A stretch of DNA of 64,000 bases from Amphirosellinia nigrospora (taxonomy: Eukaryota; Ascomycota; Sordariomycetes; Xylariales; Xylariaceae): assembly GCA_004123355.1 (NCBI GenBank), contig SCHM01000002.1, positions 1,798,001 through 1,862,000 of the forward strand. The letters are read 5' to 3'. Each line of letters opens with the position of its first letter. Within the stretch, counting starts at the first letter, position 1. The notes under the pieces are model-generated. The model did not search any database, was not told the DNA's origin, and saw nothing but the letters and a program-made list of their open reading frames with translations. Positions 1-61,765 of this stretch are shown here, piece by piece. The translations under genes were made by a program, and so were the position numbers.

Positions 1-1005
1 CGGTGTTTTCTAGAAGTTCGAAACCTCGTTGCTCGGCGAACCATTTATTACGTTCCTCCGTAATCATGTCGAAAATATATAAAAAAACGGTCTCAATTTG
101 TTCGTATGCAAGTCCTGTCTCTCGGATCTGGAAAACTGTTATTAATACTTAAGGAGAGCAAGGTATATAATGATTTACCTCGTCCGTCATCATTCGGATT
201 AAATCCGTTAATTTAGAGACCAGCCTGGCAGGAACTCGTCCGCGCTGTTGCTGGCAATCGAGATCCCTTATAACATCGTTCAGTACACTAAGCATACTAA
301 GCTCCTTCCTAGGAAAGGGCTTTTCTTCGCTGCTAAGCAAAGCACGGCACTGTTCTGCTGCAGTTTGATCGTCCCAAGGATAGCATCCTCCCGGCGGTAG
401 CTTGAAACTTCGGCAAAATTCTGAATACGAGCCTAGAGTCCAGTCTGGGATATAGTTGCCAACTAAGAATATCCAGGGCCCGGCGTTGATATTGGGGCAT
501 AGTGCAAGGTGTTGGCGATACGCTAACCCGTTCTGGAACGCAGTATGACAAGTTTCGCAGTACGTGCGACACGTCAAGCCCCCCTTTTGAACTACTCCAG
601 TACATTTTTTGACATGAGCTTGATAGGCATCTTCCATGCGGAACGTAGCTGAATCGCACTTGTCGCATTTCTTTCCGCCTGGTAAACAATGACAATAGTG
701 GCGCAAGAAAGTTGTATCAGGGAAACCCTCGTCTCCGCATTTCGGGCACCTCAATAATCCGCTGTAGGGTCTCGCATAATCACAATGCTTGGATCAGTGT
801 TCCGTGGACATGTTGAGTGCTGCCTTGTTCCCTTTATCAAAATCCCGCACCCTCTAGCGCATAAATATTTCTTTTTTTTACAAAGTTCATGGCCAGAGCC
901 CTCGCACTTCTTGGCATGGTTTCTTTGTCCCCTTTGTAAACAGTAAGGGCACCGTTTATTACCCCTATATGTTTTAAAGTGAGGTTTCTGGCGTGTCGGG
1001 CCCAT
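1..1005 (-). CDS. C2H2-type zinc-finger protein, partial (runs off left edge)
   Basis: Read on the minus strand from ATG at 1005. The protein begins MGPTRQKPHFKT and carries a series of Cys/His pairs: CPYC...KKC, CARGC...HSTC, CPKCGDEGF...HYCHC, CDKC...HVKKC and CETCHTAF...HLALC, so about five zinc-binding modules in the first 160 residues. A non-finger region follows, with WTLGSYSEFC and a helical stretch SKLTDLIRMM. A 51-nt intron (178..128; GTAAAT donor, CCAG acceptor) leads into a further exon (127..1, reading IRETGLAYEQIETVF) that continues beyond the window. Near 755 the frame slips by one base beside a GG pair; both sides read well, so I take this as the consensus base-loss pattern seen elsewhere here. 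The function is unknown; nucleic-acid binding is inferred from the fingers. It could be part of a repetitive family, since a decayed repeat-like coding region lies beside it. Confidence 0.6.
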
Positions 1006-1877
1006 TTTGCGAAGATCAGAGTTGTACCGTTCGGGTCCAGTTGCAATAGTGGGCGGTTGAGGGTGACTTAAGCAAGAGGTTTTTTCTAATAAGGGCAGTG
1101 GGATTTTTTAACTCGCTTTATTTATACATAATCATCCTGTTATAGCTAAACGCACCCTCGCATAAAAGGGATAGCGATCGAAGCCTTTAGTCTGTATACG
1201 TAGCTATACTGTCTTGAATAATGTTTCGAGCCTTTAGTAGAGTCTCTGTATTAACCTCTACATAAATGCACCGCACCTATTTGCTCCAGATGCGCAAGGA
1301 CGTAGCTGGTAAGTTCTACCTAGGTATCTTGATAGACATCAGACAGCTTTCTCTGCCTTTTGTTTTATATTTTTCTTTATTCCGTGCTAATACTCGCCGC
1401 CGTAATAGAAGTTGGTTGTAACATAGGGGGCTGTTGCCTTACGTAAAGATTCTACCAGTGTCTGCTCCTTTGCCCACGGAGCCCTTTCCGCCTATAAGAG
1501 GCATCTATCTAAATTGATAGGATAATAGTTCTTCTAAAAGATCTCTCCTCCAACTAATACTATCTTATAATTATCCGATAAGCTAGCACTTACATAACTT
1601 CGATCTTTGCACATAATGGCTACTGGGTTCACTATAAGGGCTGCTATGTTTTATATCTTTACTGATGCTAAATTATTTTTAACAGTGTTTATCGTGCGGG
1701 GATCCCTGCAGGGGCCTGGATGTCGGGTTCTCACCACTAGACAACCCTCACCTCCGGGACTTGGCACACCCTAAAGCCCCGGTAACCTCTGCAATCCCAA
1801 TTATCGACGGAACAAAAATATACACCAGATTATCCTTGACAAAGAAGTCGCACATAATTTAGTACTAGGAAGTGACC
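1006..1877. other. Intergenic, no gene seen
   Basis: AT-rich sequence between the two divergent coding regions. It has stops in all frames and no recognisable RNA gene. It would hold the promoters of the zinc-finger gene (leftward) and of the decayed coding region (rightward), but no clear TATA element was picked out. Confidence 0.5.
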
Positions 1878-8699: not shown

Positions 8700-8991
8700 C
8701 CAAGATAAGCTGGGTCTAGTAAACTATTGATCAACAGTTAACTTATCTTAATAGTTAATAAATAGTTTATTTAATTAAACGTTTAAAATTATTAGCGTTA
8801 ATATATTTAAATAGTTTATTAGGTTTTAATATTTAAAAATTTTAAACGTTTGAAATTTTTTTGACGTTTAAAAATTTTAAACGTTTAAAATCTTTCAACG
8901 GTTCATCAACAGTTGATCAACGCTTGATCAACGCTTATCAACGCCAACGCTTATCAACATCAACGCTTATCAACGCCAACGTTTGCAACCA

Positions 8992-9140: not shown

Positions 9141-9321
9141 ACAGAAGTCACGATACCTTCGTTCGTGCCTTCGTACGGGCTATTTCAATTGAAATAACGC
9201 AACAGATTCCACATTTAGTAGAATAGTCAATTCAATAAGTGGCTAGAATTCAATACAGTTCGAATCCCACACTGCACCATAATTTTCAATTGCTGTAAAT
9301 TAATAAAAACAACCGTAATAT

Positions 9322-10230: not shown

Positions 10231-11542
10231 ATGGCCTTCCTACCTCCAGCTGCCCCCAAGAGTGTCCTTGGACGACACCGACTCCTCGCCCCATCGGCGT
10301 CCGTCCGTGTTAGCCCCCTCTGTCTAGGAGGCATGAGTATGATCGAAAACTATCTCCGTTTTCCCCCTTTGAAAATTAGCTAACTATAGCAAAGGTATTG
10401 GAAATGCATGGTCGTGGGGGATGGGGAGTGTACCAAGGAGTCGGCCTTTGAGCTTCTTGATACCTTCTACGACCTCGGTGGTAACTTCATTGACACCGCC
10501 AATACCTACCAGGCTGGCGAGAGCGAACTCTGGATAGGCGAATGGCTACAGAAAACCAACCGCCGCCCGGAAATGGTTATATCCACCAAGTATACCATGA
10601 GCCCCAAGTCCGACGTCCAACAGAGCAACTACGGGGTACTGGCGCGAAGTCGCTGCACATCTCAATCCACAACAGCCTGAAGGCCCTACAGACAGATTAC
10701 GTGGATATTGTAAGTTCATTGAGGGGATATGAGAACCTTGTCTGACTCCGTTATTCAGCTCTATGTCCACTCTTGGGACTACGCTACCGAGATTCCGGAG
10801 CTTATGCATTCCTTGAACGGCCTCATCAACCAAGGGAAGGTTCTGTACCTAGGCATAAGCGACTCGCCTGCCTGGGTAGTCGCCAAGGCAAACATGTACG
10901 CGCGTCAGAACGGGCTTCGTCCGTTTTCGATTTACCAAGGCCGCTACTCTGCCCAAGAACGTGACATGGAGCGCGAAGTCATTCCGATGTGTCAAGCAGA
11001 AGGCATGGCCTTCCAGCCTTTCGGCGTGATGGGTGGGGTTATTTCAAATCCCCGCGGAAGGAGGACACTGGTGCTCGAAATGTGCCCCAGTCTTTGTTGG
11101 TCGGCCGTGAGGAGCAGTTGTCCAAGGTCCTGGATGCCGTCGCCGCGCGCCGCGATGTACCCATCACGAGCATTGCTTTGGCATATGTTCTCCAAAAGGT
11201 GAGCTGAATCCTGAAGAGACAGTGAGCATCATTAGTTAATAGCTATTACAGTCTCCTCACGTATTCCCCGTCCTTGGAGGGCGCAAGGTAGAGCACCTGA
11301 AGGCCAATATCGAGGCCCTTAGCCTCGAGCTGTCCCCCGAGGATATCAAGGAAATCGAAGGCGGTTACGATTTTGATCTTGGCTTCCCTCATAACTTTAT
11401 GAGCACGACTGGGTCTATGATTCAAGGACCCCAGGACATCCATATCCTTGCTCTCATGGGTCACTTCGATTACGTAGCGCCAGCAAAGGCTATAAAGCCT
11501 CACCAGGGTGAGCTTACCGCGCCCTGGCAGGCTCCGGCTTAA
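10231..11542 (+). CDS. Aldo-keto reductase, aryl-alcohol dehydrogenase / norsolorinate reductase type
   Basis: Exons are 10231-10336, 10395-10709, 10759-11198 and 11252-11542. The protein begins MAFLPPAAPKSVLGRHR and reads LCLGGMSIGNAWSWGMG across the first intron. The AKR catalytic tetrad is visible: Asp and Tyr in FIDTANTYQ, Lys in VISTKYT, His in YVHSWDY. The cofactor region FPVLGGRKVEHL lies near the C-terminus. The length, close to 390 residues, fits the AAD-type AKRs that reduce aromatic aldehydes or act in polyketide pathways with NADPH; the substrate here is unknown. Three one-base frame slips occur, each at a GGGG run (10423-10426, 10633-10636, 11035-11038), and each is resolved by one further G. 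Reading resumes in full family register after each, so base loss in the consensus is more likely than decay. It lies 1 kb upstream of a short-chain dehydrogenase on the same strand. Confidence 0.85.
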
Positions 11543-12606
11543 AGAAGTCTCTCCCGTCGGTTGTATGGCATGAGTCTTTTTAGGACTCGACGCTTGAGGC
11601 ACAATGACAACGGGGCACAACTAGGTTTAAACACTTGAAGGTTGTCCCAAGGCATCTGCATCTCCTGATCTCACGATACCTTGTCTGACACACCAAAACA
11701 CTCACCTTCCCAAGCCTCATATAGACTCCGTGGGACTTACGGCCCTAGGAACAAAGGACCCAGATGTATATAGCCAGGGGATAGCCCCCAGAGACCCTTA
11801 GACTCTCTGCGCAACAACAGATATCAATATACACCCCATACCCTGATAGTGAGGTCCTGGCAAAGGTTAATCTTGTCAGACATTAGAGTTGTCCTCAATT
11901 ATGATATATCAGCCTAGCTTGACAGTAGTATTGTTTCGGAAACGAAGGGACAAATTTCAGACTCAAACTACTACTTTGTAGATCTATTACATATTTTAAC
12001 TAGGTTAAAATAACGCCTGTCGTGTCCCATTTTGATTCTTAGTAGCATAGCTTTATTAGCTTTCTAGCAGTTAGGCACATCTCAAGGCTGGCATCATCAA
12101 ATTAATGTCATTTTCTAAAAGTGTATATATAAGAAGCATGTAATGGAAGGTCTGCTAACGAGAAGTCAAATACGCCCCCTATTATTTTATATAACTTACT
12201 AAACTTGCTACTTATATTATTCGCATGATACTTCTTCTATGTTTCCCTCACCTTCTTATCCTTTATCAGTAACTCTACTGAACCGTCTTGCTACTACATC
12301 GACGTTTATGCCTTACTTACAACCTATCTCCAACTCAAAAATAGACATAGGTGTAGGGTCTGGGTTTAGTTCGTGACTAGAGGCTTGTTAGTAGGGCTAG
12401 CGTGCCTTAAGGGACAGAGTCGATACAGGTTCTTGGCGGACTTAACAATCCTGGACTTCTCGGACTTTTTGCATCGTCTAAAACGTCATCGGCTAAACTT
12501 GCAAGTTATAATTCAAAACACATAAGAGATCCCATTGAATAAGTCCTAGAGACGCGAATGGGCATTGTGACGATCATTCTTAGTACTTATCTACACACCT
12601 ATCAAC
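11543..12606. other. Intergenic, no gene seen
   Basis: Lies between the aldo-keto reductase and the short-chain dehydrogenase, which are in the same orientation. It is moderately AT-rich with stops in all frames. It should hold the terminator of the first gene and the promoter of the second. Confidence 0.5.
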
Positions 12607-13755
12607 ATGGCGACCGCTATTACGAAAACCGTCATTGCTACTGGTGCCTCATCAGGCCTAGTTAGTTCTCTCTTCCCCTCTCTTCGCTAGTTAGTTACGC
12701 AAACTGATCACAAGCTAGGGATTTGAAGCTGTAAAACAGCTGCTTCAGCAAGCACAGCCCCATAGATTCATACTCGGGGCTCGCGATTCAAGATCTACCC
12801 AAGCAGCGTACGACGGACTGGAATATGATGCCGCAATGCACAGCGTCTCGGTCCTCCCTTTAGAGCTAAGTGACTTGAGGGGTAAAGTCCTTCGCGCAGC
12901 AGGCACTGGAGAAGTTGGGGAACGATAACCTGGACGTCCTCTTCCTCAATGCGGGGATGAACAAGCCTGCGACTAGCCCTGGACCACACGGGTCGAAGTG
13001 GTGTGAGGCGTTTGTGGTGAATCATCTCTGTGAGCTCTCCGTGCCGAATGAACTACTCAAGTTTAGGGATCGCAGCTCTGATACATGTCGCGATGGCAGC
13101 GCAACACTACCTCACCCATCTTCTAGAAAAGAAACTCCGGGATTCGCGCTCGCGCATCGTCGTCGTGTCGTCCGGAGGCGTCCGCACCATTCGGGACAAT
13201 GACCCTAGTATGTTTCTCCAGATCAACGTTCCCCAGATCTAGAGGCCAATAAACTAAAACCTACATGGCAGAAACACTCGACATCGATCTAAAAGCAGAC
13301 TCTGGCGCGGAAGGCTTCACTGTCTACAGTGCCTCGAAGTTCACCCAGCTCCTATCAACGCATTGGTGGCGCCGTCGACTGGGCAGCTCAGCTCGAGTCG
13401 TAGCAGTTTCCCCAGGCCTAACCGCCGGGACCGGGCTGGGAAGACACCTAGATCTCGACCACGACGTGAGTAGCCTGCCCGACGCGAAACCGGTCGCCGA
13501 AGGTATGTGCATTTTCCCTTGTCGTCGCGTGTAAATTGAAATACTGACTAGACCACGATTGAAGGCGCCAAGAGCATTCTTCGAGCCTTTACGAGCGACG
13601 ACTTCCCGAGTGACCCGGAGCAGATCTTCCTCACAAGCTGGGGCGAGTGGTGGCCCAAGGACGTGTATAGCCTCTCCCTGGACGAGGCGTTGCAAGATAA
13701 GTGGTCTCCGGACAGGGAACAGATCGAAGAAGAGGAAGCTGTGCTAATGAGGTAA
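12607..13755 (+). CDS. Short-chain dehydrogenase/reductase
   Basis: Exons are 12607-12660, 12719-13029, 13100-13207, 13272-13502 and 13565-13755. The N-terminus MATAITKTVIATGASSGLGFE gives the TGxxxGxG cofactor motif, split by intron 1. FLNAG is the structural NAG motif, IVVVSSGG carries the catalytic Ser, and YSASK is the YxxxK active site. The C-terminus ends EEEEAVLMR. The length is about 300 residues, as for classical SDRs of the retinol-dehydrogenase/WWOX-like type; the substrate is unknown. One frame slip lies at the GGGG run 12879-12882, again resolved by one missing G (LSDLRGVKSFAQQ). It may work with the upstream aldo-keto reductase, but no biosynthetic core gene is near, so a cluster is not supported. 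Confidence 0.8.
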
Positions 13756-14455: not shown

Positions 14456-15439
14456 TTATGCGGTCACGGCGGCATCGGCAGGAGCTGCCGTCGTCGTCTT
14501 CTCGGGGAATTGTCCGGCGTTGTGAACACGTCCGTACCGAGTGAAAGCTGAGAGAAACATTAGCCTTGATTCATTGTCGCGCGTCGATAGCCATCTCAAC
14601 CAGAAGTCACTTACCCAAGTTCAGTTGGCTGTAGTCCCATCTGCGGGCGAGAAAGATGAAGGCAAATGCCAAGACGGGGACTAAGAGCACATCTAGGACG
14701 CCGAAAAAGATGAAACCGGGTGTGACACCGATGCGGTTGCCACCATCGGTTAGACCGAATGCGATGGGATACAGAAGCCAGAGCAGATTAACCCAGCCGG
14801 ATAGTAGTGTGTGGTCGCCCGACACGCCTACGCGCTTAGCTGAGGAACCGGCGCTGAAGGTGTTGAAGGCCAACAGCAGCCATGAGACGGTGCCGAAAGC
14901 ATAAAAGCCCCATTTGTAGTTGGAGGTTGTAAATGCTGAGATCAGATATGAGATAACCCTATGTTTGATTAGGACCTTCCCTCAACATCTAGTAGGATCG
15001 AGTTCTGGGATGCGTTACCATGTCCACGACAGGAAGATATTGTAAAGAATGGTCGCCCATGGTACGCCACTGAGGAGACGAGGGCGGTTATAACGGCGGG
15101 GAAGCTGACGACCCAGTTGACGTACTTAGGCCAGAAGATTTGCCGAGTCAATGCTAATCTCGGGCTCGAGTTTACTTCATTGACCAATACGTAGCCCAGG
15201 TCTGATGCTTGGGCGAAGTAGGCGATCGAACCGACAAGCAGAGCAATAGTGAAGAGATAGTGGAAGATCTTCTCACCAGAACGAGCCACGAAAGTTAGAC
15301 CGAAGAAAGCAAGGAACGAAACGACGTATATGGCTGTCACTGCCCATAGCCAATCGCTGCCATTCACGCTGAGCTCCTCACTGCCACTGGGCGGATTGGC
15401 GCCTAGAGCAGCGTTTCCACGGCCTAGTATCGCGGGCAT
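14456..15439 (-). CDS. Opsin-related protein (HSP30/YRO2 type) lacking the retinal lysine
   Basis: Exons on the minus strand are 15439-15019, 14958-14615 and 14547-14456. The seven-helix microbial-rhodopsin fold is clear: SDWLWAVTAIYVVSFLAF, FHYLFTIALLVGSIAYF, KYVNWVVSFPAVITAL, WATILYNIFLSWTWVISYL, WGFYAFGTVSWLLLAFNTF, GWVNLLWLLYPIAFG and FIFFGVLDVLLVPVLAF. Against bacteriorhodopsin, helix C has Asn where Asp85 is and Ala where Asp96 is. In helix G, LDVLLV has Val where Lys216 would be. It therefore cannot bind retinal in the usual way and belongs to the opsin-related (HSP30/YRO2/MRH1) group, plasma-membrane proteins induced by heat, acid or solvents in the fungi studied. One frame slip near 15079 (one G). 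The ATG at 15439 is preferred over an upstream TTG. Confidence 0.88.
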
Positions 15440-15571
15440 GTTGGTCAATGATTTTGAACTAGTTCTTTTAAATGTTGAGAAGCCCTGTGTGTGTGTCGCT
15501 GGATTAATCTGTTGCTGGTTCTGTACTCGATAGATGACCGAAACAAAAGGGGGGGGAGGGCAGACAGATGA

Positions 15572-15579
15572 TATTTATA
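15572..15579 (-). promoter_or_regulatory. TATA box of the opsin-related gene
   Basis: TATAAATA on the minus strand, about 133 bases before the ATG at 15439. A strong TATA element is in keeping with a stress-induced gene. No heat-shock element was convincingly seen upstream. Confidence 0.45.
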
Positions 15580-17334
15580 TCGACTCAGAGTGAGGGGACC
15601 ACTAAGAGACGAGCAATGGCCCAGATCTCGATTCCGAGTAGGTATTGATTCATCTCGCGAGTTGGAGAGCTTTGGGCGAGCAGCTCGAGTGCTGTAAGCC
15701 CGAGCTGGCCGGACAGTCCAATCTGATGATCGACTAACGTCTGACAAACGCGATATGATAAATCATACCCAACCGCATCTTCTTCACCGGACGAGCCAGT
15801 TACGTGCTGGCTTCCCGCTGGGATCGTACAATCGCGAGGTCAGATGTCGACTCGACGCCGGGACGCGAGTGGATCGAACGGCGTTGCTGCATGCGCTTAA
15901 AGTTTAGCGGCCGGCTACCCTGATGGCCGGGACTGAGTGAGCGACACCTACAGTATGCCTGATCGTCATTATTAAAAGCCGAGAACCTTCTACTTAGTAG
16001 ACAGAATACCATCCATTACATTTGGATACTACTCTAAATAGAAGCGATGAACCACCAATGGGCCTGGCGCCATTTGTTTTCCTACATAGTATATGGTATT
16101 TATTGCTTGAATTAATATTACCTGGAGCGTGTTTGACATCGCATTAGTCTATAACATGCGTGGTCTATGAGGACGCCGTAACGAGAATTACAAGGAGAGT
16201 AGGGTAGCTTTCCAAAAGGGTGACCATATCGGCCGTTACATTTAGAAGCGACGCCGAGAGAGAGAGAATGGAATCAATGTTTGCAACGACCGGAAACGTC
16301 GGATGGCATCATTGACAATTGTATGTAGGCAAAAAAAAAAACGCATTGGGAGTCAGTCGAACCAGAGAGCATCAAAAACCGATCAGGGCTAGCATGCCGG
16401 CAGATGCCGGTGGCATCCGAGTAGAAAGTGGTCGATGCCGTGACACATGATGATCGAATCAGGCGTTTGTCAGGGCACAAGGCATGGGAACTGTGTCCGA
16501 CCAGATCCGAATGAGAAAAGAGATACCCTGGCTAGGATCCTGGCGGGGTCCGATCGTCGGCCCAACCGAATTATTACCATCTCGCCCGACTATCGTAGAC
16601 AAGCAACGACGTCAACCTGTGAGGTTCGCACGACGATGCTCGTGACCGGACCGGGCATAGGCATAGGCATAGGCATAGGGCGTCATAAGTAATCAATGTT
16701 ATGCGACAACATTATGCACATGCAGTTCCTTAGTGACGGCCAAACAGAGGATTAGTATCGAGTAACATCCATGATGATGGAGGTGCAGTCACATCGGAGT
16801 CCGAGTGGGGACCAACATCCATTCAGAGCCTCACATCGTGCGTTGTCGCGGGCATGTCGGTAGTTGACGTGATATAACTTAGCGAAGGCACTATGTAGTG
16901 TACGGCATCTCGCGGCGCGCCCCATTCATGCATGGGCTAGAGTTGGGTGGCGATCGGCGACTATGGCTGTCACCTTGCCATTGCAAGCTTTGTAGCTTGG
17001 TACATCTTAGAACGGGAGATGCGAGAGGCTGTCAAGATGACTAAATTGGGGACGAAAGGAAGCTCGGATCCGCCGGCAAAACATTATTTCGTGCATATTT
17101 TAATGATTTTAATGATTTTTCAGTCCCATGATGGCTGCTACTTCTCACGCCAATTGCCTAAGTAAGAAAAGAGGTCACGTGCGATTAAAATAGCTCAATT
17201 CGCACGCACCCCTTAGACTTAGACTATCAGCTATGGCGCACACTCAAGACTTGGGTACTTGGACGTAATCGTCGAGTTGGTTAGGAAACGATTCCCAAAA
17301 ACTTTGAAGCAACTCATTGGCAATCACCATCATA
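15580..17334. other. Intergenic, no gene seen
   Basis: Divergent promoter region between the opsin-related gene (-) and the DUF7704 gene (+). It has a short GGCATA microsatellite (about 16653-16679) and an A run near 16332. Open frames are short and without family features. Confidence 0.5.
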
Positions 17335-17817
17335 ATGTCAGCAGCATCACCCATACCAAGGGCCTACCGTCTCCTATTCACTACATTCGAGCCTCTGCTC
17401 GCAACATCAGGCGCCATCAATGCCTTCTTCTCGCCAACGACGCTCCTCCGCTCGACGGTGCCGAGCGTGCCGTATTCACCGGCGCTGTCCCCGCTCTTCA
17501 CCCAGATGACCGGCGCTTGGTTGATGTTGGCGTTTCACGACTTCGTGACACTACGCTCTGACGACTTCAAGGATGACGTGCGTATCTGGCGGCATACGTT
17601 GGCGGCCTCCGCTGTGAGCGACGTCTTCTATACCGCCAGCCTCATACAGAGCATGGGTCCCGCATGGTTTTTTAACCCATTGCGGTGGGACGTCATGACT
17701 GCGGTAGCTGTTATCACCACCGTGACACCTTTTCTCGGCAAGCTATGCTTTCTTGCGGGTGTGGGATTACCAAAAGTTGGTGCCGTGAGCAGACGGGGAG
17801 CGAGGAAGACGGAATGA
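17335..17817 (+). CDS. DUF7704-like integral membrane protein
   Basis: Single exon of 160 codons. The start MSAASPIPRAYRLLFTTFEP was chosen at the ATG at 17335. Four hydrophobic segments follow: LLATSGAINAFF, TGAWLMLAFHDF, AASAVSDVFYTASL and the pair MTAVAVITTVTPFLGKLCFLAGVG. A basic tail RRGARKTE ends the protein. N-terminal PxxYRLLFTTFEPL followed by a conserved AINAFFSP is what I know from small fungal DUF7704 membrane proteins, often found near secondary-metabolism genes, with no proven function. No frame correction is needed. It is convergent with the armadillo gene, whose stop lies about 290 bases away. Confidence 0.65.
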   Translation: MSAASPIPRAYRLLFTTFEPLLATSGAINAFFSPTTLLRSTVPSVPYSPALSPLFTQMTGAWLMLAFHDFVTLRSDDFKDDVRIWRHTLAASAVSDVFYTASLIQSMGPAWFFNPLRWDVMTAVAVITTVTPFLGKLCFLAGVGLPKVGAVSRRGARKTE

Positions 17818-18106: not shown

Positions 18107-21100
18107 TCAATAACCTTGTTTCATTTGCCAGAGGGCTGATTTCGCACGCTCGCGCACGTCTAATTCGTCATCGCTCTGGCTCAGGGCTTCCAACTTCTTG
18201 AGAAACCCCAAGTTCTTCAGCTCAATCGCACGTTGTGAGCACGCACTTGCGTCGCTCATATCGTCCTGCCATGTCAGATTGTTAATCAAGTGGCATAGCG
18301 CCACCCGCACGTCCCGATCTTGGCTGCTGCTTAGCTTGGCGAGTTGTCTGAGCAGATCCTTCTGCGCGATGACCAGTTGCCGATGTCGCGGTATACTTGC
18401 GGCGATATGGACTAGAATATAAAGGACTGATGCTATGATCTTGGCCTGGGGTTGAAGCACTCGAGCCTCGTTACCGCTGGAGCCTCGTCGGCTGAAGGGA
18501 TGCAAAACCTTGGGCTTCAATTTGTTGGCCAAAATCGTAAATAAACGATCCTGGCCTAGGGCATTTAAAAGATAGTCTATCATCTCCATCATGTCGTGGG
18601 CACAATCTGGATTGTTGTTTGTTCCGTGCGCATTGCCAATCAAGTTCCGGATAAATTGGAGTCCTTGTTCTTGTATAGCTAGGTCGTCGTGCCGGACCTT
18701 ACGGACGGGGTTCTGTTCTAATTCTTTGAGAGTTTCCAGCCGAGACTCTGCTAATTGGAGGATTCGAATATTCGACTTCGGTGTGGTTGAGGCGGTCTTA
18801 TAGATGGAGCTTGCAAGCCATGATCGATTTTGCTCATCTACTAAGCCCATATCTATATCCTCGTCCATAACATCCGGCGTAGTTGAGGCCGATGGCCCTT
18901 CGGACCGAGTCTTTGCCGAAAAAAGAGCCTCATCTTCGGTGTCGTCACAAATGAGTCGGACCAGCCAGCCCGACTCAAGCTCTTCCACACATCGTTTCTT
19001 ATAATCTATGCTTGCAGAATCGACCAAGTGTTTTAGAGCCCATAACGCATTTAGTCTCAACATCGGATTGAGAGAATGTGCATGTTCACATAAGACTTCA
19101 AGTACGCCGGCTTCGACCAGAGGCTAGGGTAACGTTATTAGAAGAATACTTTGCGCTACCAGGGCGATACTTACTTCTCTCATTGGACTAAAATCCGTCA
19201 CGAGGTTACATATGCAACCGGTCGCAGCAACTTGAACCTCCACATCGGGATGCCGGAGCAAGCGAAACAAAGGCTCTGAGACGTTGTGGTCAACCAAAGC
19301 AGTTCGTAGTGTATTAACTGACCGTGATAGCATTCGGATGGCATAGCACGCCGCAACTATGACTGATACAGGATTCTGCTCAAGTAGCGATGCTCTATTT
19401 TTAGAGCCGCTGTCTTGCGGCATGTCTTGGTCTTTCGCATGCATGGAACTGCCGCCAGACGGATTTAGGGAGTCGATTATATAGGTTACCACCTGCTGGC
19501 CTACAATCGCTTTACGGAAGTCTTCTTTGAAAGTCGCGAGTGCCCCAATGACCTTTAGTGTAGTTTCTCTGACCCTTGTGTGATGGATAAGTTGGGGATG
19601 TTGGCCATCGTCGCCCAACCGGCACTCGGGTGCGAGGTTAGCTGTGACGCCAACATGATCGTCATGTGGCGACCAAGGACGTGACTCTGCCGTAGATAAC
19701 GGCGTATCATAGCTATTCTTCAGTAGCTTACATATCGTCTTCACAGCGCCGCATTCAAATGCTGCTTTCTGCATAGACTCACTATCTGTGATAAGACGAG
19801 CGAGAACAGCCGGCGTCTCTTCGATGACATTCGGTCTCGTCCTCGCATCACGACTTATGTTGGTATTCCTAGATTCTTTTGTTTTCTCACCCGCATCTTC
19901 GAGCAGCTCCAATAGATCTGGAATTACCAATAGTCCCATGCTGGCTTCTCTCGTCTTGTATACGAATCCAGACTTAAATAGAGAGGTAAGCACTGACGCG
20001 GCCATGAGCGCTTCGCTTCGGTACGCGTGCGTACTAAATGGATAAGCCAGGGTACTAGCGGGGTTTTCGATGTCTCCTGGATCCGAATCCGTGTTGCGTG
20101 CAATATTCTCTTCGGGCGGCGTCCAGGATACGAGACTTGTCTGTAGTTTTGAGGACGGCCGACCATTAGTGGTAGGAGCCTCTCTGGAGGATTGGGCGCC
20201 GAGCGACAAGAATCCTCCACTATTCCCGGATGGACGAGGAAAAGATGGCGTTCCAGGTAGTAGCAAGTCCATTGTCGAATCCATTACTCGGAGTTCCCGG
20301 GGTCTTGTTGGCCTTAAACCCGGTAGTATAATGAACTCAGGTGGAGTATTAGGATACTGGCCGCTGCCAATATTGATGTTTGGGAAGCTGGCGAGAATCG
20401 ACGGAGAGTATACGAATTTACAGACCCGGAAAGGGGAGTCCGTAATGATGGCAGCAATCGCGCCCAGCACCTCGTCCAGGCTTCCAGTAGATAAAGAGGG
20501 TTCTGGCACATACTCTCCCAGCCCTTCTATTCCAGCATGCACCTCAGCTTTTGGGAGCACATATCCCTCGGTCGCAGCAAAGGCCGCTATCTTTGTGGCG
20601 AGTGCGTCCAAGATGCCATAATCCACTAGAATGGTTTGGTGGCGTTCCTCGCAGCAGAGAGTCCTTATAAGGTAGGCGACGATTGTTATCGGGGCGTCGG
20701 TTTCTTGATCCAACCTCCGAGGCAACACTATCCGACGTAAACTCTCCAAATAGCTATCAGAAAATATAATATCTGCCAGAGACTTGGAATTTATAGGTGA
20801 TGATGTCGAGGCGGCTGCTGTGGCGACTGCTAGGTGCTTGATCACGCGTAGGGAGGCGAGGACGATTTGGGGATGCTGGTTTCGGAGACAGGATTCACCC
20901 AAGACGGCGGGCAACGCACCAGCGGCGAAAAGCGGCGAGAGGAACGCGGGACCAGCTACGCAAAGTCATCATTAGCTCGGAGTGATGGCCATTGATAATG
21001 ATCATGAGGCTTGGCGAGACTGATGACATACCGTTCGCAAAGCTGGCCAGTAGTTGAAGAGCTTGTAATCGAGCCGTCACGTCGACGGCCAAGAAGGATG

Positions 21101-21304
21101 GTGGCGCTTCTTTCCCATTGCCATTCCTCCCGAAATCGTCGAGCAGTAGAAGCTTGACTATGTGCGGGAGGAGGCCGTGCTGTACCATAGTTTCTTCTTC
21201 TGGATGTCGCCGATCACATCATTCTTCAGCCGTCGAAGCGCCGCAACACAGTCAATGGGACTCGCATTGAGCTGATCTATAATCGCCTGCGGGTCGAGGT
21301 CCAT
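18107..21304 (-). CDS. GID5: Armadillo-repeat protein, Gid5/Vid28 (ARMC8) of the GID/CTLH ubiquitin ligase
   Basis: Exons on the minus strand are 21304-21032, 20955-19175 and 19123-18107, about 1023 residues. The protein is alpha-helical ARM repeats throughout. The N-terminus has LRRLKNDVIGDIQKKKL, then VQHGLLPHIVKLLLLDD, LQALQLLASFAN, LASLRVIKHLAVA and IVAYLIRTLCCEERHQ. The C-terminus has LYILVHIAASIPRHRQLVI, VRVALCHLINNLTWQDD and KKLEALSQSDDELDVRERAKSAL. These match ARMC8/Gid5 in order and style. Family knowledge: Gid5 is the scaffold that bridges substrate receptors such as Gid4 to the catalytic RING subunits, driving turnover of gluconeogenic enzymes. A Ser/Pro-rich insertion of about 150 residues lies in the middle. 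One frame slip lies at about 21190, after KKKL. The ATG at 21304 (MDLDPQAII) was chosen; an earlier exon cannot be excluded. Confidence 0.85.
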
Positions 21305-49890: not shown

Positions 49891-49894
49891 ATTC

Positions 49895-52005: not shown

Positions 52006-53244
52006 ATGCCGAAAGTACTTCTTACCGGTTAGTAATAATTGCCAATAATGCCCCTCTACCCCGCATCTTGAGGCGTCAATGTTGCCATGGATTGCGCCTA
52101 AAGCCCCTCCAAGGTGAAGCCAAAACTAGAAATTGACTGACGTGCTTTGAGCCCAACAGGTGGAACGGGCTTCATCGCCAGTATGTGACCCAAACCATAC
52201 CAACGTATTTGTCGATATAGCAATTAGGTGGACGTCGGCACTAACACCAGGCGACCCTGACCAGCCCACATCCTTGAACTCCTCCTGAAAAACGGCCATG
52301 ATGTCGTGACTACGGTGCGAAGCGAGGAAAAGGCAAAGATCGTCCGGGATGCGCACCCAGGGGCCAAGCTGACCGTCGTCCTTGTGCCCGACGTCGCCCA
52401 ACCGAATGCCTTCGACGAGGTTGTGCAGATCCCAGGTCTCGAGTACGTGCTGCACACGGCTTCGCCCTTCCACTTCAAGTTCAAGGACCCGAAGACGGAG
52501 ATATTAGACCCGGCCATTAAGGGAACGACGGAAATCCTCAAGTCGATCAAGAAGTACGCGCCGGGCGTGAAGCGCGTCGTCATCACGAGCTCCTTCGCCG
52601 CCATCGTCAACTCCACTCAGCTCGGAGACTCGAATAAGAAGTGGAGCGAGGCCGACTGGAACCCCGATACCTACGAGGACGGCGTCACGGGACCCCGGGC
52701 ACCACGTACCGCGTGTCCAAGACGCTGGCCGAGAAGGCCGCCTGGGACTTCAAGGAGGCGGAGAAGCCCAACTTCGACATCGCCACCATCAACCCGCCCT
52801 TCGTCTTCGGGCCCGTCGTACCCCACCTCGCCTCGCTAGGCGACATCAACACGAGCAACGGCAACATGGTCGCCTTGGTGGTGGCCGGTGGAAGAGCGAG
52901 ATCCCGCCGACGGGCGTGCACCTGTGGGTTGACGTGCGGGACGTCGCCAAGGCCCACGTCGTAGCCATGGAGCTGCCCGAGGCCGGCGGCAACCGCTTCT
53001 TCGTGACGGCCGGGTTGTTCTCCAACAAGGAGATCGTGCCCATCGTCCGCAAGAACTTCCCCCAGCTCGCTGACAAGCTGCCTGAGGAAGGCGTCCAGGG
53101 CGGCGACTACCCGGCGGCAGCGCCGACAACGTCTACAAGTTCGACAACTCTAAAGCTACCAAGGTGCTGGGCATCAACTGGGCCCCATTCGAGCAGACCG
53201 TCGTGGACACTATTAACAGTATCCTGGCGGCTAGTTCGAAATAG
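52006..53244 (+). CDS. NAD(P)-dependent reductase of the Gre2/dihydroflavonol-reductase (extended SDR) type
   Basis: Exons are 52006-52027, 52160-52180 (21 nt) and 52265-53244, about 341 residues. The start MPKVLLTGGTGFIA gives the TGGTGFI Rossmann motif, spread over the first two small exons. Then come HILELLLKNGHDVVTTVRS, EYVLHTASPF, VVITSSFAAI (catalytic Ser), TTYRVSKTLAEKAAW (YxxxK) and the binding region INPPFVFGP. The C-terminal part is GVHLWVDVRDVAKAHV and GINWAPFEQTVVD. The family reduces aldehydes and ketones (methylglyoxal, cinnamoyl-type, flavonol-type) with NADPH; the substrate here is unknown. Three frame slips occur at 52689-52691, 52887-52888 and 53113-53114, each in G runs and each resolved by one further G; the total length then fits a whole number of codons. 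Confidence 0.85.
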
Positions 53245-54025: not shown

Positions 54026-55480
54026 TTAGGGTTCTTGCTGGGAATGTGGGAGATCGTGGCGACGCAGAAGAGACCGAGAATGTAGGCGAGTTAGGATGCT
54101 TTGTGGCGGCGGGGGAAGCGCGCGAGTGGGTGGTGGTCCTGCTGGTGTCGCGAAATCCGACGATTCAGGCGGACCTTCAGGTAACCGAGGGAACCTCGTG
54201 GCCGACAATGGTGGCGTGCTGGTTCCAGTTACTGTGGCCGAGCTCGAGTGGACAGAGCTCACCTTGTTCGACTCAACCGTAATGGCGGAACCACCCGGCC
54301 CACTACTTAGGGAGTAGACACTACTCGGTTGAGGACGAGTTGGCACCGATGTTGTTCTAATCGCTGGAGACCCAATTTTACTTGCCGTGTCATTTCGATC
54401 GTGTCGAGGTATAAGTCCGCTTTCCGTAGGGGCGCCGATTGATGACGGCGGGAACGTCTGATTAGCGAAGCTTGGTGAGGCCGGAGATCGCGGGGTTCCT
54501 GTTTTAAGCGGCGGCTCCAGATACCTTCGCTCACTGAGCTTCGCTGGTGGTGTCAGTGGAGCGTTCCTGGATGATATGGATGGGTGGCGTTATCAAAGGT
54601 GTCCCAGAGTTGCTGTTAGGTATAGGATATGGACGATTCACATAAGTTATGAGGCCCGGCCCTGGAGAGCTTCTTCTGGGGCCCCTTCGTCGTCGGCGAA
54701 ATAGGAGGAGGAGAACAGCGATGATTGCTAAAACTGCTATCACTGAGAATATACCTATGGCTGCCTTGGCTCCTTCCGTGAGCCGTGACGAAGTAGCATT
54801 GATCGAGGCGGGTGAGCTCGTACTGCTCGCGCTACTTGCTAAGATTGATGTAGAAGCGAACGACATAGAAGCGTCTTGTGTACCGGCAGTTGGGATAGTA
54901 TTCGGCCCTATTGAATCCGTCGACCATGTTCTGGGAGTTGGAAGAATTGGGGTCCATTAGCTGTAGTATGGGGTGTTGCGCTCGTCGTAATTGTATAGGG
55001 CGTGGACAGAGCGCAGTAGTTGGTCGCAGGCGGGCCTGGGTCTTCAATTGAAAAAAAGCCAAGACTACTCGAGGTTAGTATGTGTCTCACAAAAGACTGA
55101 TGACGGCTTTTACGCACTTCTGACATTCATTAATGATTAGATCAACATTTGCTGTGCTGCTCGTTAGAGAAGACGACTTCAGTTTATCAGGTTCTGTTGG
55201 AACTGACGACTTTGCCCAATGCCTCCAGTATAAACGCCGCAGCTGATAGAATCACAGCAATATAAATCCCAGAGGCGAGTCTGTTGGTGTTCGGGCTGTT
55301 GTAGTTGGCGGCAAGCGTCCTCCACATTGGGAATCAGCTCATTAAAACACGCGGTAACACAAGCGGAGGCATTCTCCTTGACAAATTCCGCGGCGCCACT
55401 TCGACGATCCCCTGTTCTCGGATATCGAATCACCGTCCTATGAATGATATCGTGATCGCTATTGCCCCCTGCTGGCCCAT
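54026..55480 (-). CDS. Cys-rich single-pass membrane protein with Pro/Ser-rich cytosolic tail
   Basis: Exons on the minus strand are 55480-55118 and 55064-54026 (GTGCGT donor, ACTAACC branch, GTAG acceptor). The outer part has ordered cysteines: ASACVTACFNELIPN, EDACRQLQQ, LWDLYCCDSISCGVY, INECQN and ATNYCALSTPY. A Ser/Thr-rich stalk (TSATPHTTANG, SASSTSSPASINATSS) follows, then one membrane helix (AAIGIFSVIAVLAIIAVLLLL) and RRRRRGPRRSS as the inner stop-transfer signal. The tail is Pro/Ser-rich (YLEPPLKTGTPRSP, SRSLLRRHDL) and ends QQEP. This architecture is common in fungal surface sensors and orphan membrane proteins; no named domain is certain. One-base losses fit at about 55215 and 54954, and one more at the N-terminus. 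A +1 shift lies near 54575. The start is uncertain, and no clear signal peptide was found. Confidence 0.6.
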
Positions 55481-58101
55481 GGTGGTTCTCTGGAGGCGAG
55501 TCTTTCCTACGAGTAGAATTCTTTTATATAAGGTGAACCAATAAAGTTAATGAGAGGCATGTTTTGGTAGGTAGGTGAGTGAATCGTGTATTGCCGTGGA
55601 AAGAGTCGCTTGTAAACGAGTGTGAGCAATCTCAGACCCCGATGCTGACGATAGCGAGCGAGCTAGGGAGAAAGACACGGCCGTTAGACAATGGGAACTT
55701 ACATCAAGTTAAGCAACCTAGGTCAGTCAACAAGTCAGCTGCATGATACCTATATATCTACCTGCGCTGCCCATTTCGAAGTTATTGTATACTAGGAGAG
55801 ATTGGGACGTAGGTTCGTAAAGCTTAGTAGGACGATCGCGACGGTCACACGGCATTCCCCATATGCGATCACGTCGTGGCCGAATAATTGGTACTCAGAA
55901 GGTGGTGGTCGTACACTCCCGCTGCAACTTTCCGCCTGAACGATAATGAGCGACCGAAGCTGTGTGACCGTGCTCTGGTAATCTGTCTCGTATGGAAACA
56001 ATTGAGAAGGCTGCTGGTGCCCGCCTCGTGCTTTCGAGTGCAGAAGGGTGCGGTAGGTCATGCTCGTAGCGCCACCGGCCATGTAATAGGCCGCGAACTC
56101 GTAGGGGTAAAAATATATGTTCCAGAACCGAGCAAATGTTCTTTTGCTAGTAGGCGCATGCATATTGCATGTAATGACGATTCCATCCAGACCGAAATGT
56201 TTTCAATCCTCGATCTCAGCTATCAGCTGCTTACGTGCGGTTTCACTATATACAAGCCATAACTTTTGCTAGTCGTTTTTTTCCTTGCGAGAGCTTACTA
56301 GAAAGGTTCTTCCTGGCCCATTCAAGTATCTTCAAGAGACATTGACATAGCCTAAGATGGCAAATCAGTGGCGGCTGGTGTTGCGTTGGCCAGTTTAACG
56401 GATACTGACAGCGTGCGTGATACTGTCACTCCATTTGGCCGAGAAATGGTGATGGCTCTCTACCGCTTCCATAGCAACGAATAAGGGCCACCAAACACAT
56501 TTTTCACGCAAACCGTGCACAGCTAGCTCAAGTGCTTCATATTCTAAGAATGGCCAAGAGGACAAGGGCCAAATGCGGCCTGTGAAAACCGACAGTGAGC
56601 TACAGGAGCACGGAGCCCTGGAGCAATAATGAATCGAGGAGCGACGTCCAATGAATTCCTCTGGTAAACGAGAACCGCAGGTTCATGTGAGACAAAAAAT
56701 TCTGTCAATAGTTAGCTCTGTACCACAAGCTGCGACACAATGTGGCGAGGTGGCTCGACACCGGTACAACCGCTCTTTACATATGCACCTGTTTGCTCGC
56801 TTTACTTGGTGCACAGTCAAGCATGACGCGGAGAAAATGGGAACTCGTTGCTAGGCTGTGGTGATTTCGGCCAGGTTCGCGAACTGGGTGATGAACGTAG
56901 TTGAGATTACGCACATCATAGCAACAAGAAGGGGTTCCACCGGGGATCCCGTGCAGCTGATACTCGTCTGATTACGCCTCAAAGTCTGGGCTGTAGGTCT
57001 TAGTGTGGGGACTCTGAGACACGGACCAGAATGGCGAGATGAGAACCTCAACCGGAGCTGACATAATGTTGTTTACTGAGACTAGGTGTTGTATCTACCT
57101 ATCTTCTAGATACTTAATTGGCAAAGTACCTAGGTTAGTCTAATAGTATAGATAAGGAGAATCGGGAGATAGGTTTAAGAGGACCCCTTCAAAAGTATGT
57201 GCGTTCCCACTTAGAATATCGTATCAAAGTTGGGATTTAGAGATGTTGGAACATGAGTAGACCGAATCTTGCCTATTACCTAATAATAGTTAGAGACCTA
57301 AAGATGTATGCACTGCCCCGCACACACCCACTTTATTGAGAGATCACTCAAAGAGTTCACGGAACCCAACTACTTAAGTATCTACGTGGATAGTATTGCT
57401 CACCAACCATTACAGAATTGCTATGGATGATTCTGGTTCCTGGCCACCAATACATCTCAGACGTTCGATTACCTTAGGTAGCGTCAACATTTGGAAACGC
57501 TAATTAGGTGGACTTTCCCCAACCAGGCGGAATTCCGGCAAGGATCTTGAGGTTAGCATCCTGGTTCTAGCAGGTATGGCTACCTAAGGCAGTCTGAATC
57601 CAAACTTGATACATGCCTGCCTGACGTAGGTATATTATACCTGATAACCAAGGTATTGATTAGTCAAATCCCTGTATCAGGTACCAGCTGACGTTTATAC
57701 CTGGGTAGGTAGTGGGTTGAATACGTTATCGATAAGCGTCATCTACTCTAGCTACATGGGTAGGGGGGGTCCCGTTGCAGTTGCTGCGTAATCCATGATA
57801 ATGGGCTCTTCATAGTTCCATCATCCTCTATCTCCGACAACAGCACCTGCTACCGCCGCCTTACACCATCCGGACTCTCAGCCTATCTGACTTAGGCAAA
57901 CCCAATCTATCAAAGGCCCCAGGCAGGATCACAAAGAGTCATTCTCGGTGCAGATTATTTGCAGTATCATTTGCCATTGCTTATACCTCCATCCCACCTG
58001 GTTTCAACCATCTCGGGTTGCGATGAGGCTTGGGAGCCACCTTGATTGCCGTTATTTGCGCCGCCTCAAGTAGACTCTTGACTCCATTGTAAACTTGCGC
58101 C
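55481..58101. other. Intergenic, no supported gene
   Basis: Divergent promoter region between the Cys-rich membrane protein and UFD2, 2.6 kb long. Overlapping antiparallel open frames at 55792-56262 (about 123 codons each) show no family features. The 57-57.8 kb part is rich in TACCTAGG-like and ACCTAGGTA motifs. The right end is a CT-rich leader before UFD2. Confidence 0.4.
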
Positions 58102-61100
58102 ATGGATCCAAGTGAGCAGCCAGAGCCCACCTTGCCTCCGGCTGAGCAGGTATGTCATTCCCATCCTCACCGTTACGTCCCGAGCCTCCATATTAATAAA
58201 GGCTATGCTAGATGCGCCAGCGGAGGCTTGCGAAGCTAGCTAGCTTGAATGCCGCGTCGTCAAGCCCAAAACCTACTGCCGGAGAATCTAACACAGCTCA
58301 ATCCTCCGAGCCGTCGTCCTCCACGTCGCCCCCATCAAACCAAACCCAACCCCAGACTCAGCAAATCCGTATCACCCCGAGGCCGAAGCCCGCCGAGAGC
58401 TCCGTGCCTAACAATCCATTTTCCCAACTTACAAGTAAGAAGGCCGAATCTGGAATGGATCCTCTATCGATTCAGGTAATATTCGCAGCACCAAAGAACT
58501 ACAACTGCTGTTGACGCAGACTTCAGAAGCCCTCCCTGTCAAGAAGGTTCATACAATTACCGAAGAGAGCCTAGACGACTGGTCAGATCGTGTGCTTAGC
58601 GACGTGTTTCTCGTTACCCTCAACGAGAGAAGAACAGCCGATGTTCGGGGCACAAAGCTCACTTACCTACCAGAATTCGGGCCGAACTCGAGCAGTCTGG
58701 AGAGCCGGTAAAGCTCCGCACGTCGTCTATCGACGCCGCCCTCCTGGAGGCCGCTAAGCACGTGCCGAAAAACAAGGCGCTTCTCGACTACTTATTGCCC
58801 AGCTGGAAGCGTGTAATGAGGGCAAGTAGGCCATCTCGCCGACTATCTCTTGAGAAAGAAGCAGTGCTGGACGAGGCAAAGCGTCTTTGTATGAGTAACT
58901 GTATATTTGCTCTTACCATGCCGGAATATTTTGGGTACAGCCCAACCCTACACCTGTGATGCGTTACTCATGCTAATTACCGCTGCTAGCCGGGACCCCA
59001 ATCCAAATCACGACTCACTAGTCCCTTATCTTCTTCGTAACCACGATAATGAGGATGGGGTGTGCTTGGATTTCTTCACGGAGGCTGTTTCGCGCATCAG
59101 TGAAGACGATACCATAGCGCCAATCTTTACCGAGGCTATGGTTATCATCAGCAGTCGAGTCGCTAAAATGACTATGAACGATGATTATAAGCCTTATATC
59201 AACGTGAGACTTGGCTAAATATACCAGAATGATTAGTGCTGATGTTAGCAGTGCCTTGTGACTTATTCACGCTTTCCTCTCCTTCTCGACGTGCTTGCGC
59301 AGCATCCCACTTTTCAAGTTCAGCCGGACAAATATGCAACAAAAGAGGATTTAGCCAAGGCAACAGAGACGAAGACAATTCTCGGTCCTTTCTTTCGCAT
59401 CTCACCTCTTCAGACTGAGGTGACTAAAACCTACTTCGCTGCCCACGGACCATTGACCCTGGCCATGTCAAGTCTTCCCAAACATCATTACAGATGACGT
59501 TGAAGGCTCACCAAGGAGATTTAATAAGCATTATTAATGCCTTCGTCCGTGCTAGTCCTGCTGCTAAGAATAACACACTTGACTGGTTTGCTTTCAGCTT
59601 AAATTCAAATCACAAAAGGCGAGCTCTTCAGGTCAAAGCCGCTGACGTTGCGTCGGATGGCTTTATGGTGAACATAACTGCAATCTTGGATAAGCTCTGT
59701 GAACCTTTCATGGATGCTACTTTCTCCAAGATAAACAAGATTGATCTCGACTACCTTCGCCGGACACCGCGCGTGGATATGAGCGATGAGACAAAGTTGA
59801 ATGCTGACCAAGCTACATCGGATGCTTTTTACAACAATAAGGCTGAAGGCTCATCCAATTTCATCTCGGAAATTTTTTTCTTGACCCTAGCAGCGCATCA
59901 CTACGGGCTCGGAGCTAGTAACTCAAAGCTCAAGGATTTGGACAAGGATATCAAGTATGTCGAGAAAATTATCAAGCAAATGGAGGAAGAATTGCCGAAA
60001 GTACAAAATGTAAGTTCATTAAACAGACCGTCAAAGCATGAGCCCATACTAACCCGTCAGGATCCTGTTCGTTCAGCTATAGCGAAACAGCACCACCAAA
60101 GGGCTGTAGAAACAGTAGAGAAGTACATGGCCCTGAAGCACGCAATCCAAGCTGTTGTGCTCGACCAGGGCATGCAAACGCTGTCATTGCAGTTCATGCG
60201 ATATGTTGCTGTATGGCTTTTGCGAACTGCTAGTAAAACGGATTATCAACCTGGAAAGCAGATTGATCTTCCTCTTTCGGTAGACAGACCTGCAGCTTTT
60301 AGCTGTCTGCCCGAATATGCACTCCAAGATGTAGTAGAAAACTTCAAGTTTGTTTTTAGGTACGTGGGTTTGCACCCCCACTGATTATTTACTAAGTTTG
60401 GATTAGGTTTCTACCTAATATTCTAATGTCGGCCATTGGAGACGAAATAATTACACTATGCATCACCTTTCTACGATCCTCGGAGTACATAAAGAATCCC
60501 TACCTCAAGTCATCCTTAGTAACCTTGCTCTTCTCTGGCACATGGCCAATATATCACTTGAGCCGTGGTGTACTTGGTGATTCCCTGATAGGTTCAAGTT
60601 TCGCCAACGAGCATCTACTTCACTCGCTGATGAAATTCTATATTGGTATGTACAAGGTGCTTTCTATCTATGTGAACTTACTAACAAGATTAGAATGCGA
60701 ACACAGTGGCGTCAGTTCCGCGTTTTATGATAAGTTTAACATTCGCTATGAGATCTTTCAGGTCATCAAGACTATCTGGCCGAATAATGTATATAAAGAG
60801 AAGCTCAGCAGAGAGAGCAGGTAAGTTCAAAGGAAATTCATTAAGGGATCATTAGTTTCTGACGATTCTAGGGTCAACCGCCAATTCTTCGTCCAATTTG
60901 TAAACTTACTTCTCAATGATGCTACCTACCTGTTGGACGAGGCTCTGACAAAGCTTACAAAAATTCACGAATACCAGAAACACCTCCAAATCAGGGGCTA
61001 TCGCCAGAGGAGCGTGATAAAATCAAAACTGACCTAGAGCAAGCCGAGCAGCAGTGCCAATCGTGGATGCAGCTGGTGAATGACACAATGGGAATGATGA

Positions 61101-61765
61101 AGCTCTTCACCGAAACCTTGCGTGATTCATTTACCATGCCTGAGATTGTTGTCCGGTTAGCCGGCATGCTCAACTACAACCTCGAATCATTGGTTGGCCC
61201 AAAGCGTAGTCAACTTAAGGTTGAGGATGCTAAGAAATATCACTTTGACCCCAAGACATTACTGTCCGACTTCATTGATGTTTACCTCAATCTTGGACCT
61301 AAATCTGAGTTTGTTAAAGCCGTTGCTTCTGATGGTCGTTCGTACAAGCCATCAAACTTCGAGGCAGCATCACAACTGCTCCAAAACAATCTTGGGAAAC
61401 CGCCCGAGATGGTTACGGCATGGAACGATCTGAGAAAAAGGGTAGCCGAAGCTAAGGATGAGTTAGACCAAGCAGAACTGGATCTGGGTGAAATACCTCC
61501 AGAATTTGAGGATCCCATTATGGGAGACCTAATGACTGACCCAGTCATCCTGCCTTCGCGACACATTATGGACCGATCTACAATCGTCCAACAGCTTTTA
61601 TCAACCCCCAAGGACCCATTCTCAAATGTCCAAATGACTATTGACGATGTCGTGCCTGCAGATGATCTTCGCAGACAGATTGAGGCTTGGAAAGCTGAGC
61701 GCATTGCACGCGCCAAGGAAATGGCGAATCCCTCTAGCGATGCAATGGATACAAACGCTGGGTGA
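58102..61765 (+). CDS. UFD2: Ubiquitin conjugation factor E4 (Ufd2), U-box protein
   Basis: Exon starts and ends seen: 58102-58149, 58212-58475, 58520 to about 59201, about 59250-60009, 60061-60359, 60407-60645, 60694-60820 and 60872-61765. The protein starts MDPSEQPEPTLPPAEQMRQRR; a Ser/Pro/Gln-rich N-terminus follows. The Ufd2 core then reads DWSDRVLSDVFLVTL, LLDYLLPSWKRVMR, EAKRLCMSNCIFALTMPEYFG, MTLKAHQGDLISIINAF, FFLTLAAHHYGLGA, RFLPNILMSAIGDE and FVQFVNLLLNDATYLLDEA. The C-terminal U-box is DPIMGDLMTDPVILPSRHIMDRSTIVQQLLSTPKDPF in family terms (about 61510-61625), followed by VVPADDLRRQIEAW. Ufd2 extends ubiquitin chains on substrates for Cdc48 and the proteasome. One-base losses fit at about 58676, 59442 (CCC) and 60989 (AAA); one +1 shift lies near 58935. 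The introns at 60010-60060 and 60646-60693 are multiples of three without stops. Confidence 0.88.

What the first reader, a model, noticed from the sequence alone, without database searches (positions are those of the whole stretch)
1..61765. One base is missing, again and again, in G/C runs of nearly every gene
I found 18 places where a well-matched family frame resumes after exactly one missing base. They are 755 (zinc finger), 10423, 10633 and 11035 (AKR), 12879 (SDR), 15079 (opsin-related), 21190 (GID5), 24777 (EMC10), 28995 and 29234 (MFS), 52689, 52887 and 53113 (reductase), 55215 and 54954 (membrane protein), and 58676, 59442 and 60989 (UFD2). Fourteen are in G or C runs and all have the same sense. 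Random decay would give both senses plus stop codons, and housekeeping genes should not all be dead. The likely cause is homopolymer loss in an unpolished assembly. Annotations made from it would be full of false pseudogenes and truncated proteins. Four genes (SET, DUF7704, CHZ1, C2H2 regulator) need no correction.
Basis: partly seen in the sequence, partly recalled or inferred. Interest (0 to 1): 0.75.

Follow-up and report, generated by a model that had tools for sequence, protein, structure and literature searches.

The report
Dropped-base errors in fungal assembly
Many genes in this fungal DNA look broken because the genome assembly has lost single letters, mostly inside runs of G or C, and the same losses appear in ribosomal RNA genes, so this is a sequencing artefact and not biology.

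Summary
The window lies in a 48.1 Mb, 11-contig assembly, fungal by its genes. For 9 of the 14, pieces on both sides match one protein family, several weakly. Similar breaks occur in HSP70, TCP-1, HSP90 and myosin genes genome-wide: 16 of 23 direct junctions are one-base-short, 7 of 23 are the other class, so the bias is strong but not absolute. The decisive test is non-coding DNA. Four tandem rDNA copies show 23 indels and no substitutions against their consensus over 29,550 bases, with G/C-run losses rising with run length. Four of 12 5S rRNA copies read C4 where 8 read C5. G/C runs of 5 or more are under-represented (137 seen, 187.6 expected); A/T runs are not. This is residual consensus indel error in an assembly. 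The artefact is well known and of low biological interest.

The parts
149..1107 (-). zinc-finger-like gene read in two overlapping frames (open frames 751-1107 and 149-793); switch of the one-base-short class inside 751-793
   Evidence: open frames; class; only a sub-threshold zf-met match on one side, none on the other
10390..11395 (+). aldo/keto reductase in several frames; one-base-short switches near 10615-10643 and 11038-11066; intron-like gaps near 10716-10758 and 11199-11248
   Evidence: Aldo_ket_red pieces in profile order, two of them weak (gaps); ordered pieces align to 7utf_A 46-333, E 7.3e-30
12571..13752 (+). short-chain dehydrogenase in several frames; switch within 12879-12925 is of the one-long or two-short class
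   Evidence: adh_short on 12879-13199 (E 0.077) and 13253-13531 (E 0.0034) only; class
14610..15574 (-). opsin-related gene; one-base-short switch within about 15058-15098, then a probable intron
   Evidence: Bac_rhodopsin profile 6-90 then 116-208; frames
18107..21349 (-).
   Evidence: Arm matches on 19127-20965 and 18110-19123; the switch rests on open frames and codon scores only
24262..24990 (+). EMC10-like gene; one-base-short switch within 24762-24819, then a probable intron before the last exon
   Evidence: frames; no Pfam match; EMC10 tail recognised from memory
28257..30071 (+). MFS transporter; one-base-short switches near 28980-29015 and within 29208-29241
   Evidence: MFS_1 profile 118-145 (E 0.076) then 153-345 across the second switch; first switch from frames and a recalled motif
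52261..53244 (+). GRE2-type reductase in four successive overlapping open pieces without room for introns; three one-base-short switches
   Evidence: four pieces align in order, 2-311 to 7xpm_A 15-339, E 1.4e-66; classes
54534..55523 (-). putative membrane protein; the two proposed breaks (55215, 54954) were not resolved
   Evidence: no family match over a cut-off; frames
58439..61765 (+). UFD2 ubiquitin-chain elongation factor; one-base-short switches within 58600-58708, near 59444 and near 60986-60989; intron-like gaps near 60364-60401 and 60822-60860
   Evidence: Ufd2P_core pieces in profile order plus U-box (gaps); 59249-60384 part aligned to yeast UFD2 9kht_A; no family match around 58676
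17308..17817 (+). DUF7704 gene, one open frame, unbroken
   Evidence: PF24803 profile 2-143 of 145, E 2.3e-16

Best explanation
The frame breaks are consensus sequencing errors. During assembly from noisy, probably long, reads the number of identical bases in a run was under-called, most often by one and most often in G or C runs, and not corrected afterwards. Each loss inside an exon moves the rest of the gene into another frame, so intact genes look like pseudogenes. Shown: the frame breaks, their run bias, the same losses in rRNA genes with no reading frame, copies that disagree only in indels, and G/C-run losses that rise with run length. Inferred: that the living strain has the unbroken genes, and that a long-read platform without short-read correction was used. 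The platform itself is not identified.
For: (1) Non-coding test: rDNA copies a, b, d and e show 0 substitutions, 16 deletions and 7 insertions in 29,550 bases aligned to a five-copy consensus. Single-base G/C-run deletions by run length: 1 of 7253 runs of 1; 0 of 2347 of 2; 2 of 909 of 3; 2 of 189 of 4; 2 of 77 of 5; 4 of 18 of 6. (2) 5S rRNA: 8 of 12 copies read C5 and 4 of 12 read C4; seven copies are otherwise identical (4 with C5, 3 with C4), and the shorter run recurs on a second sequence background, L056. (3) Runs: G/C runs of 5 or more 137 seen against 187.6 expected; A/T 329 against 308.7 (158,526 bases). (4) Conserved genes elsewhere in the genome break in a similar way: 16 of 23 direct junctions one-base-short. 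(5) The four reductase pieces align in order, without gaps of intron size, to one solved homologue; AKR pieces likewise but with introns. (6) Density is of one order: 15 frame switches (18 claimed) in about 14.8 kb of the ten genes here (spans, classes); 23 indels in 29.55 kb of rDNA.
Against: Not all in one sense: 7 of 23 genome junctions, 12879 and two of three HSP90 junctions are of the other class. Not all in runs: 21190 and one HSP90 junction. rDNA copy c has 3 substitutions with 25 deletions and 15 insertions in 7,080 bases, and the longest rDNA self-match (copies d and e with more flank) has 13 mismatches in 9,456 columns, which must lie outside the shared segment. Copies of 5S and rDNA can vary genuinely. 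G/C runs of 8 or more are not depleted (3 seen, 2.7 expected). Aldedh, Sugar_tr and tRNA synthetase showed no direct junctions, though for the first two only 11 of 62 and 9 of 272 candidates were scored. No reads were available.
Confidence: 0.95

Rival explanations
1. The breaks are real mutations: a slippage mutator strain (mismatch-repair loss) or widespread gene decay.
For: Run bias and loss bias would look alike; several contig starts are AT-rich and RIP-like, so mutation is active in this genome.
Against: The one HSP90 gene found and several HSP70 and TCP-1 genes carry breaks, which a living fungus could hardly bear. rDNA copies a, b, d, e differ by no substitution. Pieces beside the breaks still match their families.
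Confidence: 0.03
2. Programmed ribosomal frameshifting on a large scale lets the cell read across real one-base gaps.
For: Most breaks are of one class (14 of 15 classed in the window; 16 of 23 genome-wide) and many sit at G/C runs.
Against: The same losses occur in rDNA and 5S genes, which are not translated. Several breaks per gene would leave almost no product. Both classes occur. A shared slippery motif was not sought.
Confidence: 0.01
3. Insertional RNA editing restores bases in transcripts of both mRNA and rRNA genes, as recalled for slime-mould mitochondria.
For: It would affect coding and rRNA genes alike.
Against: Editing sites should be fixed between copies of a gene; here rDNA and 5S copies disagree with each other at the same run, and differences lie also beyond the 18S stretch.
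Confidence: 0.005
4. The switches are introns misread as frame breaks.
For: Several switches in the same genes do fit introns (47-53 nt over the profile); 19 of 56 pairs genome-wide are intron-like.
Against: At the direct junctions the two frames meet or overlap, with no room for an intron (59442 and the three reductase switches; 23 of 56 pairs genome-wide).
Confidence: 0.01

Closest known systems
Homopolymer indel errors in nanopore-only filamentous fungal assemblies (PMC9453082, passages seen)
   Same: Small indels in homopolymer regions of single-copy fungal genes, said to cause frameshifts; more at low coverage
   Different: That paper counts three BUSCO genes at known depth; here platform and depth are unknown
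[quoted passage not shown]
   Same: Most indel errors are false deletions, tied to runs of two to eight bases; real genes look like pseudogenes
   Different: There A/T runs were hit about twice as often as G/C; here G/C dominates
Single-base deletions at run ends in PacBio assemblies (PMC6005640, passages seen)
   Same: Majority of corrected errors were single-base deletions at homopolymer runs
   Different: In that bacterium the runs were A or T, and only 2 to 265 errors per genome were corrected

Membership tests
residual homopolymer indel error of a long-read-type assembly | single-base indels concentrated in runs, rate rising with run length | tested here: met
   for G/C runs in rDNA copies a, b, d, e (small counts); for run link in the window and depletion of G/C runs of 5 to 7
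residual homopolymer indel error of a long-read-type assembly | affects coding and non-coding sequence alike | tested here: met
   rDNA, 5S, genes
residual homopolymer indel error of a long-read-type assembly | few or no substitutions along with the indels | tested here: met
   0 in 29,550 bases in copies a, b, d, e; 3 in 7,080 in copy c
residual homopolymer indel error of a long-read-type assembly | disappears when accurate reads are mapped | not testable with these tools
   no reads available
nanopore-specific run compression | long A/T runs shortened too (recalled expectation) | tested here: inconclusive
   A/T runs of 7: 35 seen against 16.4 expected; 8 or more: 21 against 6.1; no finished relative as a baseline
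programmed ribosomal frameshifting | confined to translated sequence | tested here: not met
programmed ribosomal frameshifting | shared slippery motif or downstream structure | not tested
   not pursued once rDNA and 5S showed the same losses
pseudogene decay | stop codons and substitutions in conserved domains besides frameshifts | tested here: inconclusive
   window pieces were cut from stop to stop, so open by construction; some genome-wide matches hold stops, which frame switches or introns could explain; rDNA copies a, b, d, e show no substitutions
insertional RNA editing | the same sites in every gene copy | tested here: not met
   rDNA and 5S copies disagree at the same run

The most novel reading that the evidence does not exclude
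A living strain with a very strong slippage mutator whose genes really carry short G/C runs, tolerated by relaxed decoding or transcript slippage. Copy-to-copy run-length variation in rDNA and 5S would then be real.
Probability: 0.01. Interest if true: 0.9.

Novelty: not a real feature. Interest (0 to 1): 0.12.

Why it matters
Gene models, pseudogene counts, completeness scores and protein families drawn from this assembly will be wrong for many genes, conserved ones included. The case also shows a simple read-free test of assembly quality: compare tandem rDNA and dispersed 5S copies, where real evolution should leave substitutions and consensus error leaves mostly run-length indels.

Tried and rejected
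A codon-model gene finder with equal costs for both senses was too weak for short exons: in 18 calls scoring 20 or more in the window and four 10-kb loci it placed 6 frame switches, all 6 of the one-base-short kind, but it missed most others, called some switches introns and made one call antisense to the reductase. Telomere repeats as a fingerprint of the platform: no telomeric arrays in the first 3 kb of the contigs (11 starts, that of C2 reads N where shown; the ends fetched were not analysed). tRNA genes as a further non-coding test: none in the window. Rfam at gathering thresholds found nothing in the window. 18S of one copy against the Rfam model: only the first part of the alignment was shown, and it held few gaps. 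Literature on G/C-biased loss as a mark of one platform: no clear statement in the listings of searches or in the passages read, so the platform is left open. The 'no correction needed' claims: DUF7704 confirmed; SET-like and C2H2-like pieces had no Pfam match; CHZ1 was not located. SDR, GID5, opsin, MFS and EMC10 were not compared with solved structures. Of 56 neighbouring pairs, 14 were neither direct nor intron-like by my limits and were left out of both counts. Of 26 loci eligible for the run count, 3 were dropped for low G+C content or N; L047 and L048 in it overlap.

Full report
What was checked. The window is G000:C4:1798001-1862000 of a 48,114,038-base, 11-contig genome with intron-bearing genes and a eukaryotic 18S rRNA that looks ascomycete to me (group recalled, not tested). 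I asked whether the 18 places are frame switches, in which sense, whether they lie at G/C runs more than chance, and whether the same thing happens where no reading frame exists.

The 18 places. Open frames, codon scores and three-frame views give a frame class for 15 of 18 places. 14 of 15 are of the one-base-short class. 10423, 55215 and 54954 stay unresolved. Family evidence on both sides of a switch exists for nine: 10633 and 11035 (Aldo_ket_red), 52689, 52887 and 53113 (Epimerase for the first two; one solved ketoreductase from end to end for all three), 59442 and 60989 (Ufd2P_core; the first also across the join to yeast UFD2), 15079 (Bac_rhodopsin), 29234 (MFS_1). Several of these matches are weak on one side (E 0.03 to 0.23). 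The clearest gene is the reductase: four open pieces that overlap, whose residues in order match 15-339 of 7xpm_A with E 1.4e-66. The UFD2 pieces around 58676 matched no UFD2 family. Other switches in the same genes are intron-like gaps with 47-53 nt more than the profile asks for.

Run context. A G/C run of 3 or more lies within 3 nt of 9 of 18 places where 10.9% of positions in the same genes would have one, and a run of 4 or more at 4 of 18 against 1.7%.

Genome-wide. Eight families were searched over the whole genome, giving places and profile positions. Of 56 neighbouring pairs, 23 are direct junctions (gap under 30 nt, difference from the profile at most 30 nt): 16 of 23 one-base-short and 7 of 23 of the other class; 13 of the 23 differ from the profile by exactly one missing base. 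A few of the 23 are overlapping matches of the same stretch and less certain. Another 19 pairs are intron-like; 14 fit neither limit and were left out. By family the direct ones are 7 in TCP-1, 6 in HSP70, 6 in myosin, 3 in HSP90 and 1 in SET; none in Aldedh, Sugar_tr and tRNA synthetase, where for the first two only the best candidates were scored. HSP90 has three junctions; from the HSP90 sequence as I recall it, two look like gains in A/T stretches and one like a loss outside a run. So gains probably exist too.

Non-coding control. rDNA lies at the start of contig C10 in at least five partly masked copies. Realigned to their consensus, copies a, b, d and e have 0 substitutions, 16 deletions and 7 insertions over 29,550 bases; copy c is noisier with 3 substitutions, 25 deletions and 15 insertions over 7,080. 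An earlier alignment showed 5 substitution columns for copy a that vanish on realignment. A longer self-match of copies d and e, with more flank, has 13 mismatches in 9,456 columns. Counting single-base deletions in copies a, b, d and e, G/C runs of 4, 5 and 6 lose a base in 2 of 189, 2 of 77 and 4 of 18 cases; A/T runs of 4, 5 and 6 in 0 of 118, 1 of 36 and 0 of 32. Insertions at G/C runs of 5 (3 of 77) may mean that the consensus itself is short there. Indels fall in the 18S stretch (introns included) and beyond it. In 12 dispersed 5S genes whose letters I held (of 33 listed), 8 read C5 and 4 read C4; seven are identical but for this run. Lengths of all 33 range from 115 to 132, with 11 of 120 and 12 of 119; some may be pseudogenes.

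Run lengths. In 158,526 bases from the window and 23 other loci (two overlapping), G/C runs of 5 or more number 137 against 187.6 expected from neighbour frequencies, with no deficit at 8 and above (3 against 2.7); A/T runs 329 against 308.7, with an excess at 7 and above. A finished relative was not available as a baseline, so part of the G/C deficit could be natural.

Reading. Losses that occur in rRNA genes as well as in coding genes, come with few or no substitutions, grow with G/C run length and differ between copies of one rRNA gene are the mark of consensus error. Passages read describe homopolymer indels in nanopore fungal drafts (PMC9453082), false deletions that fragment genes (PMC12007338), single-base deletions at runs in PacBio drafts (PMC6005640), higher indel rates in ONT and RS II assemblies (PMC8495745) and under-estimated run lengths in nanopore reads (PMC8486125). 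The G/C preference and the intact long A/T runs fit poorly with what I recall of older nanopore drafts, and I recall G/C-run losses from PacBio CLR drafts, but I found no paper that settles this (search listings 46, 52, 53, 59, 60).

Noticed in passing
L033, L034, L036 (contig C10): The 18S rRNA gene carries a group I intron (RF00028) in each of the three copies scanned, and the 18S match spans about 2.94 kb, so more inserted sequence is present.
   Followed up: no
G000, 33 places: 5S rRNA genes are dispersed over C1, C4, C5, C6, C7, C9 and C10; the 12 read fall into at least two sequence types.
   Followed up: partly
33000-52000: Long stretch with few convincing coding frames; the gene finder called nothing above score 20 between 30071 and 52264, though it was a weak tool.
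   Followed up: no
5246-5545: A piece of a cytochrome P450 near its C-terminal end (PF00067, profile 398-438, E 1.1e-7) without the rest of the gene in the same piece; perhaps another broken or intron-split gene.
   Followed up: no
23138-23707: Cyclin-domain gene (PF08613, profile 47-149, E 1.1e-31); its start may lie in the frame of 22504-23169, joined by an intron or a break.
   Followed up: no
8917-9189: Open frame with tandem short repeats (SPY and AANTA-like units).
   Followed up: no
starts of C1, C3-C8 (L009, L011-L016): AT-rich in the first 120 bases shown, perhaps repeats mutated by RIP; no telomere arrays in the first 3 kb.
   Followed up: no
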